Below, piece after piece: positions 42,702 through 53,602 of a stretch of DNA of 64,000 nucleotides; the stretch's first letter is position 1, and every line of letters starts with the position of its first letter. The notes below the pieces were generated by a model that ran no database searches, was not told the origin of the DNA, and saw only the letters and a program-made list of their open reading frames with translations. A program made the translations under genes and the position numbers. The stretch comes from Daphnia pulex (taxonomy: Eukaryota > Arthropoda > Branchiopoda > Diplostraca > Daphniidae), in the NCBI RefSeq assembly GCF_021134715.1, contig NC_060021.1, positions 6,014,001 through 6,078,000 of the forward strand, written 5' to 3'.

Positions 42702-45700
42702 TTATTTAGCCAATGACCACAAAGGATCGAGTTGGCTGAGCGGATCAGAAGGATCAGACATTGAACCGAGCTGAGAGGCGTTTTTAAAACTTTCTTTTGT
42801 AACGCGGTGTCTATTTGTTTGGCCGCCGTCCAACGTGAAGTTTGCCGGATCAAGGATAGCCAACGCCCCTAGAGCCTGGCTCTTTTTTGGCGTAGGTGTG
42901 TCTGTCGTTTGCAACATCGCTGCTGGTTCTTCTGTTACTTGGGGAGCCACTTCTTCCGTTGCTGTCGTTTCTTTCAAAACATTCGCCGCTGCCTCCAACA
43001 CAGGTGTCGCATCTACAAAGATCGAACGCGTCATAAATCAAATGCAAAATGTTGGCAACGGTTAAACATTTTTACTGTTCGAAGGAGTTGGAATCGGTGA
43101 ATGAATGAAATCTTGCGATGGATGATGTTTCTTTATAGGGGATCCTTGCAATGAAGTCGTTCCCGACAAAATTCCTCCTATATTCAAGCAAATTATTGTT
43201 ATTGTTATTTTTTATTATTTTTTATGTAAAATCTTTTAGAGTTTATTGAAAAACTTTTACTTTTCATGAGTAAATCCTGGGCGTGATAAAGTAAGGCTTG
43301 GTAAGCAAAGAGCAAGTGTTCACGATCTCGGAACATGTTGCGTCGATGCTGGCAAAGGCTCGCCGCAACCCGTACGACGTCCAACAGTCCATGGCCTATC
43401 AGAAAAGGATTCATCATTATTTCATGCAAGTAATGTTAAGCTTGTACAAATCGTATGATGGATGAGCTTACCTGAAGTAAGGTCATTGAGGGCCGTAGAG
43501 AGGAGGCAAAAAAGACCAGTACGTCCTGCGCCCGCCAGACAATGGACAACGATCGGATGGGTTTTGCTTCGTTGCTGCTGCCAACAGTGAAGCACTTCAT
43601 TCGTCAATTGAAGAAACTGGGCAGGCGAAGCGGGAAAGCTACTTCCAGGCCAGGCTGTAAATTGTAAGTGTATGACTACACGCTGTTTGGCTTCTCCCTA
43701 AAACAAAACAAAACAAAAAAGTCGTCAACTCTCTGCATGGATGAATTTAAAAATTCATAGAAAATGGAAGTTGTAAAAATAAAATTACGTTTTTGCTGAG
43801 ACCAAGGATTCGTTCGTGGCAATACGAGCGGATGTTACTGCTCTGAAGTGTTATGGTCCAGGGGCCAGAGATGACATCACGGCCCTTCTCTACAGGCCAA
43901 TAAATAGCTGTCGTTGAAGGGCTGGGCTTGGGTATTTCGGCGTCCGAAAGTAAACAAACAACAATTTCAACCGATTGTTGCCATATCATCGTCCAAAAGT
44001 CCTGCTGGCTGCAAGGCAATGGCGTTTGAGTGGCGATGAAAGAGGGAGCGCCAGGCGATAAAGCAGGAACCAAAGAGGCGTTAATGTAATCATCCTTTGT
44101 AGTGGGCAGCTCCACACGATTGTGGTCGTAAGGTAGCACATCTGGGAGTCGGTTCTTCATGGGATAACACCGCGCCACCGAAATACTGTGACGAGTTGAC
44201 TCACGCTCTTGCAATTCCAGCACTTCCTTCCAGCGGGTGTCCAGTGAGGTTGGTCCATTGAGACTTTTGCGAGTCAGGCCGTCCACCAACTTGTCCAACT
44301 TCTCGACATCCACAGCCAGTTTACATGCTAATTCAGCGTCAGCTAAAGGATCTTTGTGGCCAGTGGTTGGGAGCGTGGTTAGTTTCACTTCAGATTTGGT
44401 AGGTGATTCGTGAAAAGGAAAAGATTCAGTAGCGGAGGAGATGGACGTGGGTTTGATTGGATCAGGCGTGGCAGCGGGAGTCATCATAACCGACTTGATG
44501 GTTGAATTGGTCAGCGTAGTCGTACCTTGTGTACTCCCACCAGGAGTTTGAGCCTCTCTAGGTTGGGGCTCCAATAGGCCACCGATAGGAGCCATAGGAA
44601 CAGAAAGATCTAAAAGCGTCAAAAGCTCTAAATTGCTAGCGACTTGTCCAACGCCTGTGGGATTTGGCGGCACGGTGGCGGGTAAATGAGCTACGGGAGC
44701 CTGAGCAACAGTAGGAGCGGCAGGAACTGATGTGGGAGCCAACGGAGTAGGCTGAAGAATTTGCTCTGCGGCCGGAGGATAAGAATTGGCAGCCGGATAG
44801 TAAGATCCAGGATGCTGGTAGTGATAGTTATTGACTGGATCAACTGGATTTGGATAGTAAGGATAATGTTGATACTGTCCGATTCCGGAAGCCGAAGCGG
44901 CGGTTATTAATCCCGGACCTTGATGTCCGGCTGACTGAGAGAGAGCCGAATTATTAGTACCTGTTACTCCGTGTTGATAACCCCCACTCCCGTCTATGTT
45001 TGGATTGGACGAGCTGTATCCGTACGGATATTGATGCATTGAAGCTGCAGCCGCTGTTGTTGTTGCAGGCGGATAGCCGTACATGGAACTGCCCGGATAA
45101 TAGGGATACTGTTGTTGCTGAGTTGGAGGAATGTTTACATGAGTGTTTGGATAAGACAAGGGACCCGATTGGGTTTCTCTCCCAACGGATGGTTGGTTCA
45201 GATAACTCGCAACCCCATAAGTCTGCTGCTGTTGAGATACGGCAACAGCCGTTTGGGAAAAAGATGAAGGAGCTGCAGAAGATGGTTGCTGTTGGGTTGC
45301 CGGGGCAAAGTGAGGAGCATAAGCCGATGAAGTTCCTCCATTAGGAGTCATATAACTCGCTGTTGGGTAATTGGTTGAGGAATTAGAAGTTGTTGTTACG
45401 GGAACACTGGGGGTAGGTTGTTGCCCCATTTGAGAGACTGTAGGGTATGCTTGTTGCTGCATCGACAAGGCGATGTCGTACGATGTCGCACCAAGAACTT
45501 GGCCATAATAGTTGGAAGTAGGTGGATAATTCTGAGGTTGCATATGTTGAGTTGAACCAAAAGACTGCGGGTTGTTTCCTCCTCCTCCTCCTGACGGTTG
45601 CTGACCCAGATACGCCTGACCTCCTGCTGATGGATAAGACGGTTGTTGGGGTTGGCTAGTAGGAATCGGATGCGGATTGACTGCAGTGGTGGGTTGCTGA

Positions 45701-48700
45701 TGAAGGGGAGAAGCCGAAGGAGAAGGATAATTGTAGCTGGATTGAGCCAAACTAGAAGCACCCGGTTGGGTGGCTGAAAACGACGAAGACCTATCAGTTG
45801 TTTGGAAACCACTACTATAAGTTGGTCTTGGTGGATTTGGTCCAGAAGGCGGGAACCCACTTTGGGAAGTATTATTTTGATAGTAATAAGAATTGCCGTC
45901 AGGCACATAGGGCGTCGATTGCGGATGGCGATCACTCTGCTCGGCACCAAGAGGAGTCGGACGTTGATACGGGTAACTAAACGGGGCGACGGCATCAGCT
46001 CCAGCAGAACCCGGTGGAGGTGCTGACGATGTGGTTGGAATAAAAGATGGTTCCATTCCAACTCGATCTTTTTTCATTAAATGAAGAAAATCTTTCAACT
46101 TCGGACCGCTCGTTACATCAGTAGATTCTGGAATTTCGGGTCGTGGGTTGGTCACAGGAGTGGGGCGATTGCGTTCTCGTGCAGCCTCCTGCTGTTCACG
46201 CTCTTCCTGTTGGACACGACAGACGGATCGCAAACGCTGCAAGAGTTTCGTGACATTCGTGTCCATCTTCCTGTAGAATTCGAGACCTTTTTGGCACTTT
46301 GCAATCAGATCTGGATAGGCCTCGGCGGAAGCCATCAGAGCAGCTACGGTTGCAATTCGACGCTGCTGAATGTCGGCAGTGGAGCGTCGCGTGTCTGCGT
46401 ATCGAGCATTGGCTTCCGTTAAAGCAACGAGGATCTTCTCCTGGGCTGAAAGATTTTGTTCGATTAACGAAGTCAACCGTTGGTGCTTTGCCAACTCCTG
46501 GGTAAATAGGACCTCTAAATCCGTCTGGTGGGTTGCCAATTTGGTGATGTCATCGGCTTGAAGGGCTTCACGTAATTGAGTGTAAAGCATTTGGCGTTGT
46601 TTGCGCATCTCTTCCACCTTGTCGAGAAGCCGATGCAACTCTTTAATAGCTGCTTGGTCTTTACTTGATTCCAGCACTTGAATACTGGGTAACTGAGCTT
46701 GGATTTCAGATAATGGAAGGCTTAAAGTCCGCAAATTGCCCAAATGTGAATTGATGGCCTTATGCAGGAGCATGTTGGAATCAGCAGCTTTTGCGTGGGC
46801 TTCGACAAAGCGACCAGCTTCAAGCGAAAGTTCTTTTAAGATCATTGAAGGGGGTCGTTTGCCTTGGCCTTGATAAATCCTTTCATTTTCTTGTTCTTCG
46901 CTCAAAAGATTTTGGATTTCGGCCAATGAAGACTCTACATCAGTGTAGACTGACGACAGCTCACCCATGGCATCAATCAGACTTTGGACCACGTTTGTTT
47001 CGACACTAAACGCTGCACAGAGATCAATCAACTCCTGCGGTAGACCCGATGGTTCCAAATGCACTCTCAATTGGTCAACCTGCATTTCAGTAACAAATAA
47101 ATCATTTGTATGTGGCTAAATGGAGAACTATTTAATATTAACCTGAAGTGATGTTAAAAACAATGCCAATTCTTGATCTTTTTCTTCGACATTTCCACCA
47201 ACTCGACGTAGTAGTTTGGCTTTTTCCTCACTGATTGAAAAACAAACGAAACATTAACTTTGGATGGCTTTGAATAATTCAACAACAATCGTGCAATACC
47301 TGTAGAGTGAAGATGCTTCGTGAGCTTCCATGGGTACTAATCGATGAAAAATATCCTGGCCAGCGATTTCAGGGTCTGTAACATCGAAAGGCGTGCCTTT
47401 CACAAGAGATGCGCCCTTAATGTCAGGTAATGAAGCGCGGTCGGGAACTTTTTCATGGTAAACGAATTCGTTTTCTTTCTCGGCTGCCTTGAGTTTGCCA
47501 CCAACAACGTCATGGACGAAAGAAATCGCATCATTGACACTTTCTGATTTATTTTCTAGTTTTTTGGCTTTTTTGGTCGCCTCTGTAAGTTTATCCATTG
47601 CAGCCTGTTAATACAAAAAAATCGTGCTGAATTCTAAAGAAAGATAAGTTAAAATGTCAAGGAATACTACCTGAAAGTAAGCAAGTCTTTCTCCCATCTT
47701 CTGCATCTCCTCACTATGTATACCCATGTAGAGCAAAGCCACACACTGATGGAACGTCATCTTGAATTCGCTGTACTTTTTCCAAATATTATAAGCTTTG
47801 ACTCCGGCAACTTCGACTAGGGCATTACTGTATGTGGTAATTGTATGAATTAGTATGAATCTAAACTATGTGTAGGATCAAGTTAAATAAGGTAGGAGTC
47901 TTCCTAAGCACTCACATAACCTTACTTAACCTCTTTCTAAATCTTTATTGAATGAACATTACCCATCTGGATGGTTGTCACCCTGATCCAGCACTTTAAC
48001 AGCTGACTTGTAATAATCAACAATCTGGGCAGCTACCTGTAACCAGTTATTGAAATGTTTTGGATTTGCTGAAATGATCACTGACTTGTTAATAATTTAC
48101 CTTTGCCACTATTCCAGGTTTCCGCCCATCAATAATGCTCTTTTCTAAAATGCATTCTTGAGCCTGGGCAAGTGAAACTGTTGCAAAAAACTTGACAAGA
48201 TCATAGCCCAAATCTGTCTCTCTCTGTTGAGGATATTTTTCATTGAGCTGTTGAAAAGCCCAAGCAGCACACTGAAAGTGAGAACAGCTTATCTTCATGC
48301 CATCAGCAGTCTGACGACTGTCCATGGCACCCAAGTTCATGTGTAGAGCACCAATATTGTACAACACACACGCCATTTCATGCTTGATATCAGTTGTTGA
48401 ATATGCCAATCCAGTGTACATATCACACCTGAAAACCAGTGTAATAATATGAACATGTTTTAAATGTTAAATTTATATTAACTGTTATTTGAATCTGGGT
48501 ACCATGTAAAGAAGACTTCATCTCTTCCTGCTTCACTAAATGTGAATCGATTTTGCAGAAAATTAAGTTGACAGTAGTATTTTTTTAATAGAGAGCAGCC
48601 AGTAAAATCTTGGGGTGGATGGCATGCTGCAGCACGAAGAGTTTCGAGTTCTCTGGTTTCATTGGCATAGCTGTTCGGATCCTCGTTAAAGTGCTCTCGA

Positions 48701-48860
48701 ATTTGCTTGAAGATGAATCATCAACAATTACGAAACGTACAGCAAAACAAACAGCTAAGGACAAATCAGTTACCCATTTAACTTTTCGACTAAAATCTGT
48801 TCTTTCCGGGGATGTCTTTAGAGATGTCCGTAACATGTAAAGTTTAGGAACTCCTTCCAT
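42702..48860 (-). CDS. PTPN23: HD-PTP, Bro1-domain tyrosine-phosphatase-like protein (PTPN23)
   Basis: HD-PTP is an endosomal ESCRT adaptor that sorts ubiquitinated receptors (myopic in Drosophila). Twelve minus-strand exons: 48860-48774, 48705-48503, 48428-48101, 48036-47963, 47827-47671, 47604-47300, 47230-47143, 47079-43789, 43697-43472, 43395-43261, 43177-43076, 43012-42702. Phases join to 1768 residues. The Bro1 domain is about 1-385 (ACVLYNIGALHMNLGAMDSR, CSHFQCAAWAFQQL); the V domain is about 386-740. A long Tyr/Gln/Pro-rich linker (about 750-1350) holds many PYGY and YPYYP units. The PTP-like domain is about 1359-1615. Its motifs are degenerate: WPG (1527-1529) replaces WPD, KNRL replaces KNRY, while the P-loop HCLAGAGRTG keeps Cys1564 and Arg1570. 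The C-terminus SDPSDPLSQLDPLWSLAK matches the human end. The first exon is divergent from the nucleoside kinase. Confidence 0.96.
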
Positions 48861-49139
48861 CTTTGATTGTTATTAGTGTTTTCTATAAATTGAATTAACA
48901 AACAGTCAAACACTGCGATTCTCCATAATCCGACGAATTCCAGCAAATTCTGTTTGACACCTATGACAGGAGAATGAGTTTCTGCGATGGACCCCTAGAT
49001 GACTCTTTAACTAGTAAAGTAGTAAATAAAGTTGAAAAATCGTCTGCAAACCAAGAAAGTGTTTTTTTTTTTCTGTCCATGTGTGAAATTTTTTTCAATA
49101 TTACTGGTCAAAATTGCTCAAGATATATATACAGAAGTA

Positions 49140-49218
49140 ATGACAAGTCGTTTTGTTCAAAAATGGAGTCAATTAGTGTACTCAATGATGAGGAATACTC
49201 GCAAAACTGTGAAATCAG
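49140..49218 (+). CDS. Candidate alternative first exon of the nucleoside kinase (mitochondrial-type presequence)
   Basis: An ATG at 49140 opens 26 codons plus one base, ending in a donor TCAG|GTAAGA at 49218/49219. Joined to the acceptor TTTTAG at 49382, the frame runs for 17 more codons straight into the kinase start at 49433 with no stop. The added 43 residues begin MTSRFVQKWSQLVYSMMRNT and are rich in Arg/Lys/Ser with no acidic residue in the first 26, as in mitochondrial targeting sequences. It is inferred from splice signals and phase; no transcript evidence is available. Confidence 0.5.
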
Positions 49219-49287
49219 GTAAGACTATTGATTTTTAATTTTTTGTCTTTGAGTGAATTCGCTCGGAAGCGCCAAGTCGATAATGCG

Positions 49288-49312
49288 GGGAAAATTTTAT
49301 TGGCGCGAAATT
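49288..49312. promoter_or_regulatory. E2F-like sites in front of the short kinase transcript
   Basis: GGCGCGAAA at 49302-49310 is, on the other strand, TTTCGCGCC, a full match to the E2F consensus TTTSSCGC. A second, weaker G-rich element GCGGGGAAAA lies at about 49285-49294. Both sit in the candidate intron between the presequence exon and the start at 49433, where a promoter for a cytosolic isoform would be. E2F control is common for S-phase nucleotide metabolism genes. Confidence 0.4.
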
Positions 49313-49432
49313 TCGTGATTTCCGGTTGAAAACAACGGTTAGATCGTCTCTCTCTCATGCTGCCTTCCATTCACGATTTTAGATTCACGACCAAGCGACT
49401 TTCCTCACCGCACACTCCCTTTTTTAAAAAGC

Positions 49433-50334
49433 ATGGACAAACGAAACAAACCTTTTACTGTTGTAATTGAAGGAAACATTGGTTCAGGCAAGACCACACT
49501 TCTTAATTATTTTAGTAAATACAGAGATGTTGAGGTTTTGCAAGAGCCTGTTGAGAAATGGAGGAATGTTGATGGACATAATCTTTTGGTAAATTTGCTA
49601 TTGAAATGTGTGTAATTTTAAGTTAATATGTTTTGTTTATTTGATTAGAGCTTACTGTATGATGATCCAGCCCGTTGGAGTCTGACTTTTCAGACTCATG
49701 TACAATTGACCATGCTTGATCATCACACTAAGGAGACATCTGCTACAGTAAAACTAATGGAGAGATCCTTATTTAGTGGGCGCTATTGTTTTGTGGAAAA
49801 CTTGCATGAAAGCAAATTGATGGAACCCGCTGAGTATGCAGTCATTTCAGAGTGGTTCAAGTGGATAACGAAAAATGTTGATGTTGAAGTTGATCTCATT
49901 GGTAAGTCTTGGAAAAGTTGAAATCATTCACATGTTGTTGTATGTATTATATATTCATTTGTTTAATAGTTTACTTGAGATCTGATCCTGAAGTAGTTCA
50001 CAAAAGGATTTTGCAGCGTGCTAGGAAGGAAGAGAAGACTGTCCCCTTAAGTTATATTGTAGCTTTGCATGAAATTCATGAAGATTGGTATTATTTCTAC
50101 TCTTAGTTTCCTTTTCATCAAAATATTACTTTATACTTCATTAATTGCAGGCTTCATCACAAAGTTTCTCATCCCGTGCCTGCACCAGTCTTGGAAATCG
50201 ACGCCAATGTCGATTTAACTGAAATGCTAAAACAAATATCTTTAGTCGAAAATCAGATCTTGAACAGAAAAGCAATCAAACGTGTACTCTCGTCACCTAG
50301 TTCCTCACCATCTAAATTAGTTTCTCCTGCATAG
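49433..50334 (+). CDS. dnk: Deoxyribonucleoside kinase (dNK/TK2-like)
   Basis: This enzyme phosphorylates deoxyribonucleosides with ATP to dNMPs in the salvage pathway. Insects have a single multisubstrate dNK related to vertebrate TK2, dCK and dGK. Exons are 49433-49588, 49649-49901, 49970-50087 and 50151-50334, giving 236 residues from this start (Drosophila dNK 250). The P-loop GNIGSGKTT is at 14-22, the catalytic ERS motif at 90-92 ([17 protein letters not shown]), substrate-side residues in [17 protein letters not shown] at 138-144 and the lid [11 protein letters not shown] after it. A Ser/Pro-rich tail ([14 protein letters not shown]) ends the protein. The start [14 protein letters not shown] fits a cytosolic form; an upstream exon may add a mitochondrial presequence. 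The polyadenylation signal at about 50449 nearly meets that of the convergent gene at 50568. Confidence 0.94.
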
Positions 50335-50567
50335 TCAAACCCAACGTGATGGATTGTTCGTTGCTGGTGACCAAATGAATAGCTATTTTGCATTGTATCG
50401 AGTAGCATTCATGTAATAGTTTTCATTTCCAATCATTTTCTTAATATAATAAACACGAATTTATCATAAATTTTATTTATTTTCGAATGTTTTTTTTCTG
50501 ATGTAAAATTAGCTTGCAAATTAGAAACAAATTGAAGGTGGTAATCAGTGTTCTTAGATCCATAAGC

Positions 50568-52027
50568 CTAGCCTAGCTTTGCTTTCTTCATAGGCGATTC
50601 CTCCAATGACACAACTTCACCAGGAAACAGATCGTTCGAGGGCATTTCATAAGATTCGGAAGACGCATTCGTATCTGACTTGATTATATCAGAAGTATTG
50701 GCAATCACCTTGGTAGTCGACTTGGTCAGGGTCGTTGTCTCTCTTTTATTGACGCTGAGAAGTAGAGCTTCGCTTAGTTGTGCTTCGGGAAGATCGCTTG
50801 TAGTAGGAGCAGGACCCGATGTGTCCAAAATCGTTAAAACCTCCAGGTTGCTGTAACTTGTTGTTATGGTAGTGTTCCCAGCGACCGTATTTGTTGGGAC
50901 AACGTCAACCGGTAAGAGGGCAATAGTGGGATCGCGAGTGAGAACTGACTGGAGTATTTTGTCGGAAGGAGAGAGAGAGTTAACTGGATTGTAGGGATAT
51001 TGCTGGTATTGTCCTATTCCAGAGGATGCTGCGGTTAGTCCCTGATCTTGCTGGTGCCCTGCCGACTGTGAAAGGGCAGAATTGTTAGTACATGTTGTTC
51101 CATGTTGATAACCGCCGCTTCCATCCATGTTTGAATTAGACGAATTGTAGCCGTACTGTGCTTCTGAATAATAGGGAAGATTTTCTTGTTGTTGCTGTAC
51201 TGGAGCTGCCACAGTGGTTGGCGGATGAGAAACAGAAGACGATGGTAGGTCGTTTCTACCAATTTCGGAATTCAAATCTTTCTTTACCCCGTTGGTCGCC
51301 TGTTGGGATACCGCATTACCGTTCGTCGGAGTAGAAGTACTCATTGCTGAAGATGCAACAGAAGTTGGGAGCTGTTGATCTGTTACATTTACGGAGCTCT
51401 TGGCCATGGCTAAATCAGTTGATTTTGAATGGTAAGGATAATGTTGGTACTGTCCGATTCCGGATGACGAAGCGGCTGTTAATCCTAGACCTTGATGTCC
51501 GGCTGACTGAGAGAGAGCAGAATTATTGGTTCCTGTTGTGCCATGTTGATAACCTCCACTTCCGTCAACGTTTGAATTCGATGAGTTATAGCCGTACGGA
51601 TATTGATGAATGGATGTTATTACTGTATTTGTTGAGTTTGTGGAAATCATTCCACCAGTAATGTTGACCATAGATTGTTGCCCCATGTGTGACAGATATG
51701 TTTGCTGCTGCAACAATAATGATGAAGAGAGGTGGGGTTTAACATGGTTAGCGTCAGAATCTTCATGGCCATGGCTGTCAGAATTTGTAAGATAATTCTG
51801 ATGTGACATTTGTTGACGAATTACACCAAATGAACATCCTTCTTCTGTTGGCTTACGAGTAGTGTGAACTGCTTCTTTGTTGGATTGATCTCTCATAAGC
51901 TTTAAAGAGAAACTAGATTTAATAAACAAATCTTTAAAAAAATTAGGAAAAAATGCAATACTCTGTTCTCCGAGGAAGTTTCCAGGGCCGTACGCAGGAA
52001 GTTTGAAGTAATCTTATCTCCATCCAT
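50568..52027 (-). CDS. Chimeric partial paralog of HD-PTP: first exon plus duplicated Tyr/Gln-rich linker
   Basis: Minus-strand exons are 52027-51962 and 51899-50568, giving 465 residues. The first exon (MDGDKITSNFLRTALETSSE) resembles the HD-PTP start MEGVPKLYMLRTSLKTSPE, and even the leader bases before the ATG are alike (TTGTTAATT then TAGAAAA). Exon 2 opens with about 80 unassigned residues, then carries two copies of the HD-PTP linker block: SSNSNVDGSGGYQHG (plus about 51421-51616) and SSNSNMDGSGGYQHG (plus about 50985-51165). HD-PTP has one copy (SSNPNIDGSGGYQHG, plus about 44810-45040). A later block YSNLEVLTILDTSGP matches HD-PTP ASNLELLTLLDLSVP, and the end SLEESPMKKAKLG resembles PFHESPTKSEVKL. 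Bro1, V and PTP domains are absent. The frame is intact for 443 codons. Function is unknown; the composition is disordered and prion-like. Confidence 0.75.
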
Positions 52028-52741
52028 CTTTTTTTTTCTAGTTTTCAATTAACAAGTAGTAACTAATTCTTCAACATTATTAATACAATTGGGTGGATCA
52101 GTTCCCAACTGGGTCCTTTACTTATGTTCAATAGCGATCCAGCTGTTAAGTAAAATTGATTTGCTGTCAGAATGCCTGTCGTCTGCAAATCTAATTTTAC
52201 GCACAACAAATTTATTCAAATATGAATTTTTAAAATTCTTAAAAGATAATATATCAGTAATTCCACGTAGAATATTTTAATTTCACATTTACACACAGAT
52301 TTATCGGAAAAAGTCAAAACTCGTGAAATAAATCCACAACAAATCCCATAAAAGTAAAGTTCCTTCGCTCAGTTCGCTGAGAAAGTGAGAAACTAACTAC
52401 ACTGTCTGGCTACTCTGTATTTGAAATGCGAAAATTTTAATTCCTTAAAATTTGATGTTTGAAAAAGGTTTGTAAAATAGAAAAGAACCAGAATAACATA
52501 AAACATAAATGCTAACTTACTTTTAAGAAATAATAAAAAGATTGGATTTGAAGAAAAGTGAGTTGCGCGACAGCTTTAAGCAGTGAAAGAGCATATAAGG
52601 AGAGCAAACGAGAGCAGAAGTGATACTGACTTTCAAAGAAGATCTAAGAACAACGTTCCAATATAAATCTAGATAATCTTTCGACAAGCTAAAAAAGCAG
52701 CTCCCAAAGAGAACCGTATCAAGGACAGCAAAGGATCGAAG
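52028..52741. promoter_or_regulatory. Divergent intergenic region with TATA-like element
   Basis: This separates the HD-PTP paralog (minus) from the acidic orphan gene (plus). A CATATAAGG element at about 52590-52598 lies about 145 bases before the orphan start codon and may be its TATA box. A CGTCTGCAAA sequence near 52170-52190 also occurs near 49040 upstream of HD-PTP, a sign that the duplication included upstream sequence. Confidence 0.4.
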
Positions 52742-53602
52742 ATGGAATCACAGGATAACAGCACGGAAATGGCACTTCCGATCATGGCTAAAGTTGGTGA
52801 AATCGATCCTACCACCAGTGAAGAAATTATCAATGACTATCACGAAAATATTTCTGAATTTCCCCCTGAATCGAATGACGCGGAAAATACACTCCCAGAC
52901 GAATCACTTGAAAACATCCCTGAGGATCAGCCAGATCCTGTCACGCAACCAGAAAGTGATGATCTGAATGAAGAAATAACGCTTGAAGATCCAATTGAGG
53001 AAACCTCTCAATCAGAATTAGATGTTGCGAGTATTCCTAATTTTGAGAATCCCGAACTTATGGATAATGAAAGCACTGGCGATCAGTGGGAATCAGAAGT
53101 CGCGCAACCGGAAACTGTCCCGATCATGATTAAACAGCGAAAGCAACCGAAAAAACTTGAAGTTTATTCAGACCGTCACACGACCAATGATGCTGTAGAG
53201 TCTGAGAAACTCATTCCTCGCAAACCGTCAAACTTTGTTCGAAACAAGCTGAACATGAGCGAAGCGTTTCGTTTGGCACCAAGAGACACAACTCCAAAAT
53301 ACGGCCGTTCACGAAGTGATACCCTCGAAGAAGCAGAAGAGCTTCGAAGACAATATTATAACCAAAATCAAAAACAACAAAAATTTCGTTGCGACTGTGG
53401 ATGCGACTGTGATTGTCACAACGAAGACAACAACCGACGGATGGTGCCTGTTCAATTGCCAATAAATGTCACAACTCGATATGACTCGAATCCGAATGGC
53501 TATCCCCCCGTTGTTAATGTCAGTTTGCAGTTACCGAATAGCATCCCAGGTGATGTCCAACCCAATCTACCGTGCTCTCTGAAAGTTGAACTCGAGTTCT
53601 AG
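52742..53602 (+). CDS. Uncharacterised acidic protein with a Cys cluster
   Basis: A single-exon ORF of 286 codons; I do not recognise a family. The N-terminal 130 residues are strongly acidic and Pro/Ser-rich (ESDDLNEEITLEDPIEE). A basic stretch follows (KQRKQPKKLEV). The middle has KPSNFVRNKLNMSEAFRLAP and an RSRSDTLEEAEELRRQYY helix. At about 217-226 is a tight cluster CDCGCDCDC, ending in CH, that could bind metal. The C-terminus is Asn/Pro-rich and neutral (PPVVNVSLQLPNS). There is no signal peptide or membrane segment. A TATA-like element lies upstream at about 52590 and polyadenylation signals downstream (about 53711), which support a real gene. Intronless and without a recognised relative, it may be a lineage-specific gene. 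Confidence 0.7.
   Translation: MESQDNSTEMALPIMAKVGEIDPTTSEEIINDYHENISEFPPESNDAENTLPDESLENIPEDQPDPVTQPESDDLNEEITLEDPIEETSQSELDVASIPNFENPELMDNESTGDQWESEVAQPETVPIMIKQRKQPKKLEVYSDRHTTNDAVESEKLIPRKPSNFVRNKLNMSEAFRLAPRDTTPKYGRSRSDTLEEAEELRRQYYNQNQKQQKFRCDCGCDCDCHNEDNNRRMVPVQLPINVTTRYDSNPNGYPPVVNVSLQLPNSIPGDVQPNLPCSLKVELEF

What the first reader, a model, noticed from the sequence alone, without database searches (positions are those of the whole stretch)
50568..52027. A new gene assembled from HD-PTP: exon 1 plus a duplicated disordered linker, all folded domains lost
Seen directly: the first exon and the leader bases resemble those of HD-PTP 3 kb away, and the second exon carries two copies of the Tyr/Gly/Gln-rich block that HD-PTP has once, in a 443-codon open frame with its own stop. 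Bro1, V and phosphatase-like domains are gone. This looks like a tandem duplication followed by a large internal deletion and a second local duplication, with selection keeping the frame. A stand-alone HD-PTP-like disordered linker could compete for ESCRT or SH3 partners or form condensates. That function is inference.
Basis: partly seen in the sequence, partly recalled or inferred. Interest (0 to 1): 0.88.

Follow-up and report, generated by a model that had tools for sequence, protein, structure and literature searches.

The report
Domainless HD-PTP offshoot, conserved disordered gene
A water flea carries, next to its HD-PTP gene, a second small gene made mainly of that protein's floppy middle part with its best conserved piece present twice, and a related lineage keeps the same reading frame intact, so it looks like a real working gene and not a relic.

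Summary
On the minus strand, exon 1 (52027-51962) and exon 2 (51899-50568) join across a 62-bp GT-AG intron into a 465-codon frame. It has no Pfam domain, resembles the disordered linker of HD-PTP, and carries that linker's conserved block twice. Two database relatives (98% and 72% identical over exon 2) keep the frame and both blocks. Neutral drift to 28% amino-acid change left none of 400 runs without a stop (mean 7.0). It is very probably a selected gene. (1) It is old: synonymous distance to HD-PTP is 1.1-1.6 outside the blocks; the tree places it, without firm support, outside the window-like, D. magna and D. carinata HD-PTPs. (2) The 3' part of block A differs from HD-PTP at 1 of 55 bases while its 5' part is equidistant: gene conversion (p = 0.00015). 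(3) TSG101, ALIX and class I/II SH3 patterns are absent, so ESCRT/SH3 competition is not supported. Best mechanism, inferred: a disordered two-site ligand for the block's unknown partner. Transcription is untested.

The parts
51962..52027 (-). exon 1, ATG at 52027, 22 codons, resembles the start of HD-PTP exon 1
   Evidence: DNA match good with the leader, peptide match weak alone
51900..51961 (-). predicted 62-bp GT-AG intron, phase 0
   Evidence: no transcript evidence was available
50568..51899 (-). exon 2, 443 codons plus stop, HD-PTP linker-derived
51432..51608 (-). block A (aa 120-178), extra copy of the HD-PTP linker block, placed where HD-PTP has none
51432..51516 (-). part of block A exchanged with HD-PTP by gene conversion (1 of 55 gap-free aligned bases differs; a short variable piece inside was left out of the count)
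   Evidence: permutation p 0.00015
50991..51155 (-). block B (aa 271-325), the copy in the position homologous to the HD-PTP block
50823..50852 (-). SNLEVLTILD motif (HD-PTP: SNLELLTLLDLS); the leucine after LLD is a threonine here
50709..50738 (-). TTTLTKSTTK motif (HD-PTP: TTTLTNSTIK)
50571..50597 (-). C-terminal SPMKKAKLG, short basic tail absent from HD-PTP at this place (NLS-like by recall of monopartite signals, untested)
50472..50481 (-). two overlapping AATAAA poly(A)-signal-like words, about 90 bases past the stop
44851..45036 (-). parent block in the HD-PTP big exon (aa 683-744 of the 43747-47082 frame)
42705..48860 (-). HD-PTP (PTPN23-like) parent gene: Bro1, V and phosphatase domains present
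   Evidence: D. magna HD-PTP aligns piece by piece over residues 1-1757; Pfam

Best explanation
This is a conserved protein-coding gene, an old partial duplicate of HD-PTP that kept the start of exon 1 and the disordered linker and lost every folded domain. Shown or strongly supported: frame, usable splice sites, descent of exon 2 from HD-PTP, doubled block, purifying selection on the blocks, a gene-conversion tract with HD-PTP. Inferred: it is transcribed and translated; it is disordered; it works as a two-site linear-motif ligand that binds the same, still unknown, partner as the HD-PTP linker block, without HD-PTP's endosomal machinery, and so competes for or bridges that partner.
For: Two relatives keep the full exon 2 frame and both blocks. 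Neutral simulation to 28% amino-acid divergence: mean 7.0 stops, 0 of 400 runs without one. Blocks A and B, SNLE and TTTLT are identical at 132 of 142 aligned residues between this gene and the 72% relative, against 145 of 246 (plus 14 gapped) in the unlabelled rest, Fisher p 4e-14; two further stretches that I labelled apart, 17 of 18 and 17 of 23, are in neither group. Between blocks A and B pN is 0.05 while pS is 0.76; in the 3' part 14 of 14 B-to-HD-PTP differences and 13 of 13 A-to-B differences are at third codon positions. Columns that HD-PTP conserves are kept more often here: 23 of 33 in the most conserved class, 24 of 114 in the least. The motifs occur in the parent's order, with A as an added copy.
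Against: No RNA or protein evidence was reachable, and no ortholog DNA, so ortholog dN/dS is not computed. The 96-98% relative alone proves nothing: at 4% divergence 132 of 400 neutral runs have no stop. Pieces outside the blocks evolve fast (dN about 0.6 against HD-PTP). The block's partner is unknown. Exon 1 is not visible in the relatives, so its conservation is untested. I named the conserved modules after seeing alignments. AlphaFold without an alignment gave pLDDT 36.9, which fits disorder but is weak evidence.
Confidence: 0.55

Rival explanations
1. Conserved gene, but the blocks are kept for a bulk physical property (tyrosine/glycine/glutamine-rich self-association or condensates), not for a shared partner.
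For: Composition: S, T, N, G and Q together make up 48% of residues, Y 4.1%; P falls from 14.7% in the HD-PTP linker to 4.9%; no folded segment predicted.
Against: Bulk properties tolerate substitution, yet the blocks are nearly invariant residue by residue (55 of 59 and 49 of 55 identical to the relative) while synonymous sites differ widely between A, B and HD-PTP.
Confidence: 0.2
2. The conserved protein moved to the nucleus: an export-like, clathrin-box-like leucine pattern was lost and a basic tail gained, so it acts as a nuclear regulator or decoy.
For: The patterns L[LI][DENS][LF] and LxxLxxLxL-like are present in 13 of 13 HD-PTP linkers and 0 of 3 copies of this gene; KKAK at the C-terminus in 3 of 3 copies. 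The overexpressed human linker is diffuse in cytosol and nucleus (PMC3002266, passages).
Against: Short pattern matches; the motif meanings are recalled and not tested; net charge of the protein is -15, and the K-K/R-x-K/R pattern also occurs at another place in 12 of 13 HD-PTP linkers.
Confidence: 0.15
3. Non-functional fragment of HD-PTP that is open by chance.
For: No transcript data; fast-evolving pieces outside the blocks.
Against: 0 of 400 neutral runs stay free of stops at the observed divergence; strong excess of synonymous change in the blocks; blocks far better kept than the rest. The six gap runs against the 72% relative are whole codons only by construction of a protein alignment and are not counted as evidence.
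Confidence: 0.05
4. The frame is translated as part of a longer or different transcript, with another start or upstream exon.
For: Exon 1 peptide similarity is weak alone; exon 1 cannot be seen in the two relatives.
Against: Leader plus exon 1 DNA is the window's best match to HD-PTP's first exon outside HD-PTP itself, and the 96% relative lacks the internal MRD start (it reads LRD), which fits a start upstream; the 72% relative does have MRD.
Confidence: 0.1

Closest known systems
HD-PTP / PTPN23 (Drosophila Myopic), Bro1-family ESCRT adaptor
   Same: Linker block, SNLE and TTTLT motifs in the same order; start of exon 1
   Different: No Bro1, V or phosphatase domain; proline-poor; block twice; leucine after LLD lost; basic C-tail
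Partial gene duplicates (for example fog-2 from ftr-1 in C. elegans; review PMC3449122, passages)
   Same: Truncated copy of a longer ancestral gene; that review notes that internal amplification of short tracts can accompany it
   Different: Only a disordered motif region plus a short first exon survived, the main block doubled, with a sequence exchange with the parent
Human HD-PTP 'Histidine Domain' (residues 705-1128; PMC3002266, passages)
   Same: Corresponding place in the protein, disordered binding region
   Different: The human region binds Grb2/GrpL SH3 domains, endophilin A1, Tsg101 and ALG-2; the class I/II SH3 and P[TS]AP patterns are absent here

Membership tests
HD-PTP / PTPN23 protein family | Bro1 domain | tested here: not met
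   0 Pfam families at E <= 0.1 in the 465-aa protein
HD-PTP / PTPN23 protein family | V (ALIX_LYPXL_bnd) domain and phosphatase-like domain | tested here: not met
   Present in the parent exon, absent here
HD-PTP / PTPN23 protein family | Linker block and SNLE/TTTLT motifs of the HD-PTP relatives found here | tested here: met
   Block core pattern in 3 of 3 copies of this gene (twice each) and in 10 of 13 HD-PTP linkers; SNLE and TTTLT patterns in 3 of 3 and 13 of 13
Partial gene duplicate | Shorter copy collinear with a longer ancestral gene | tested here: met
   aa 35-445 align in order to HD-PTP, 33% identity, E 4e-43; full-length HD-PTP in D. magna and D. carinata shows that the long form is ancestral
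Partial gene duplicate | Expressed | not testable with these tools
   No RNA data held
Pseudogene | Frame decay under neutral divergence | tested here: not met
   0 of 400 neutral runs free of stops at 28% divergence, observed none

The most novel reading that the evidence does not exclude
A motif-only offshoot of an endosomal adaptor, made two-site and relocated (leucine export/clathrin-like pattern lost, basic tail gained), became a dedicated antagonist or bridge for the adaptor's linker partner, and gene conversion with the parent keeps the recognition block matched to it.
Probability: 0.2. Interest if true: 0.7.

Novelty: new variant of a known kind. Interest (0 to 1): 0.5.

Why it matters
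It isolates, by natural deletion, the part of the HD-PTP linker that selection protects. If confirmed, it points to a binding motif in branchiopod HD-PTP (block core GGYQHGTTGTNNSALSQSAGHQ) that none of the papers I saw mentions, gives a clean bait for finding its partner, and is a tractable case of a gene that survives with little more than a disordered, motif-bearing part of its parent.

Tried and rejected
Rejected: that the intron's 3' part and the exon 2 start descend from the HD-PTP stretch GPKLKDFLHLMKKDR (486 of 3000 shuffles score as well). Rejected: my first reading that block A as a whole is a late copy from HD-PTP. Overall it is closer to HD-PTP than to B (codon differences 11 against 21 among 39 codons with one amino acid in all three; 122 of 10,000 bootstraps disagree), but the breakpoint test shows that this is confined to its 3' part, and with three sequences the site counts (52, 24, 20) only show that B has the longest branch. 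The direction of the exchange is not known. A tree date is not firm: the gene lies outside P0003 (99% like the window's HD-PTP) plus D. magna, D. carinata and P0006, support 90/88, and placing it next to P0003 is not rejected (p-AU 0.141). Searches that found no relative: viral contigs, genome contigs; a profile search returned only the same two proteins. Each protein search scored only about 8000 candidates sharing most words, so 'two relatives' is a lower bound. The organisms of P0001 and P0002 are unknown, so I cannot say which Daphnia lineages have or lack the gene. No dNK remnant in 52027-52672 by blastn. Paper searches: 'HD-PTP'+'Daphnia' 0 papers, 'Daphnia'+'PTPN23' 0 papers; some searches gave listings, from which I read passages of three papers and no whole text. 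The bacterial promoter/terminator scan is not apt for an animal and was not used.

Full report
Setting. The window is G000:C5:6014001-6078000 of a 133.19 Mb, 13-contig genome. Its HD-PTP linker is 61-62% identical to that of annotated D. magna and D. carinata HD-PTP; with the genome size this suggests D. pulex or a close ally, but the species name is my inference. HD-PTP runs from 48860 to about 42705 on the minus strand, and D. magna HD-PTP aligns to it piece by piece. A deoxynucleoside kinase gene (plus strand, Pfam dNK E 4e-17) lies between HD-PTP and the finding.

Observation. The spliced protein has 465 residues and no Pfam family at E <= 0.1. In the whole genome, exon 2 matches only itself and one HD-PTP stretch (aa 90-162 of exon 2, 77%) at E <= 0.001.

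Anatomy. Collinear alignment shows the exon 2 parts in the order of the HD-PTP linker: an N-terminal piece (SFG..QM..QNY, then QQQTYxSxMGQ), a middle piece, block B with its flanks, the ILQ piece, SNLExLTxLD, and TTTLTxSTxK. Block A is an extra copy set between the N-terminal and the middle piece. AlphaFold2 from the single sequence gave mean pLDDT 36.9 with 441 of 443 residues under 50; without an alignment this is only compatible with disorder.

Is it a gene? Protein searches returned two relatives, P0001 (96% of the spliced query, 98% of exon 2) and P0002 (70-72%), each standing for a cluster of 13 sequences. Both keep exon 2 end to end with blocks A and B; their organisms are not named. 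This genome has a single copy, so P0002 comes from another lineage. Unconstrained substitution to 28% amino-acid change gave 7.0 stops on average and no stop-free run in 400; to 4%, 132 of 400 were stop-free, so P0001 alone is no evidence (substitutions only, half of them transitions). Against P0002, the blocks and the two motifs are identical at 132 of 142 aligned residues and the unlabelled rest at 145 of 246, with 14 gapped. Two further labelled stretches (17 of 18 and 17 of 23) and the 22 exon 1 residues that P0002 lacks lie outside both groups. I named the modules after seeing the alignments, so the p-value of 4e-14 is descriptive.

Age and exchange. Against HD-PTP of the same genome, Nei-Gojobori dS is 1.20, 1.14 and 1.56 in the N-terminal, middle and C-terminal pieces, with dN 0.63, 0.66 and 0.61; in the blocks, A to HD-PTP has dS 0.52 and dN 0.06, while A-B and B-HD-PTP have pS 0.76 and 0.78, beyond correction, with pN 0.05 and 0.15 (by eye the last figure is raised by one misplaced gap). 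In the tree of 16 proteins and 320 columns the three copies of this gene form one clade (100/100), outside P0003 (99% like the window's HD-PTP) plus D. magna, D. carinata and P0006 (that group 90/88; sister to P0003 not rejected, p-AU 0.141). Over 45 gap-free codons, the 5' part of block A is about equally far from B (14 of 80 bases) and from HD-PTP (17 of 80), whereas the 3' part differs from HD-PTP at 1 of 55 and from B at 13 of 55; the breakpoint statistic is reached in a fraction 0.00015 of 20,000 permutations, the run of ten A = HD-PTP sites in 0.00325. Ectopic gene conversion between the two genes, direction unknown, explains this best. Because of it, the A to HD-PTP dS of 0.52 is not an age.

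How it formed. Same orientation with dNK in between fits duplication of an HD-PTP + dNK unit followed by loss of the second dNK; dNK is single-copy in the genome at E <= 0.001 and no remnant was seen. This is inference.

What it does. In human HD-PTP the corresponding Histidine Domain is reported to bind Grb2, GrpL, endophilin A1, Tsg101 and ALG-2 (PMC3002266, passages), and the proline-rich region TSG101 and STAM2 (PMC5567221, passages), so the linker in this group may use other ligands. What selection keeps here is the block, almost word for word, while synonymous sites changed widely. I therefore favour a two-site ligand for the block's own partner. The loss of the LLDL-type pattern (13 of 13 HD-PTP linkers, LLDL itself or LLSL in each; 0 of 3 here) and the C-terminal KKAK (3 of 3 here) hint at a change of place in the cell; the meaning of these patterns is recalled, not tested.

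Verdict. A real, probably functional, old partial duplicate; unusual in keeping little more than disordered, motif-bearing sequence. Partial duplicates as such are common (PMC3449122, passages).

Noticed in passing
48860-49433: HD-PTP (minus) and the deoxynucleoside kinase gene (plus, ATG of the P-loop frame at 49433) lie head to head with under 600 bases between those start codons; dNK is single-copy in this genome at E <= 0.001.
   Followed up: partly
50448-50481: The dNK gene and the HD-PTP offshoot converge, with AATAAA words on both strands within 34 bases.
   Followed up: no
52742-53602: Plus-strand frame with an acidic first part and a CDCGCDCDCH cysteine cluster later on; no Pfam family at E <= 0.001.
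   Followed up: no
43515-43544, minus strand: The HD-PTP phosphatase signature reads HCLAGAGRTG (the same in D. magna): leucine where active phosphatases usually have serine (recalled).
   Followed up: no
44851-45036: The linker block is recognisable by eye in HD-PTP of all 13 relatives found; the pattern [YF][QN]HG.TG[ST] matches 12 of 13, P0015 having a two-residue insertion. A deep conservation inside a fast disordered linker; the paper listings and passages that I saw do not mention it, but no search was aimed at it.
   Followed up: partly
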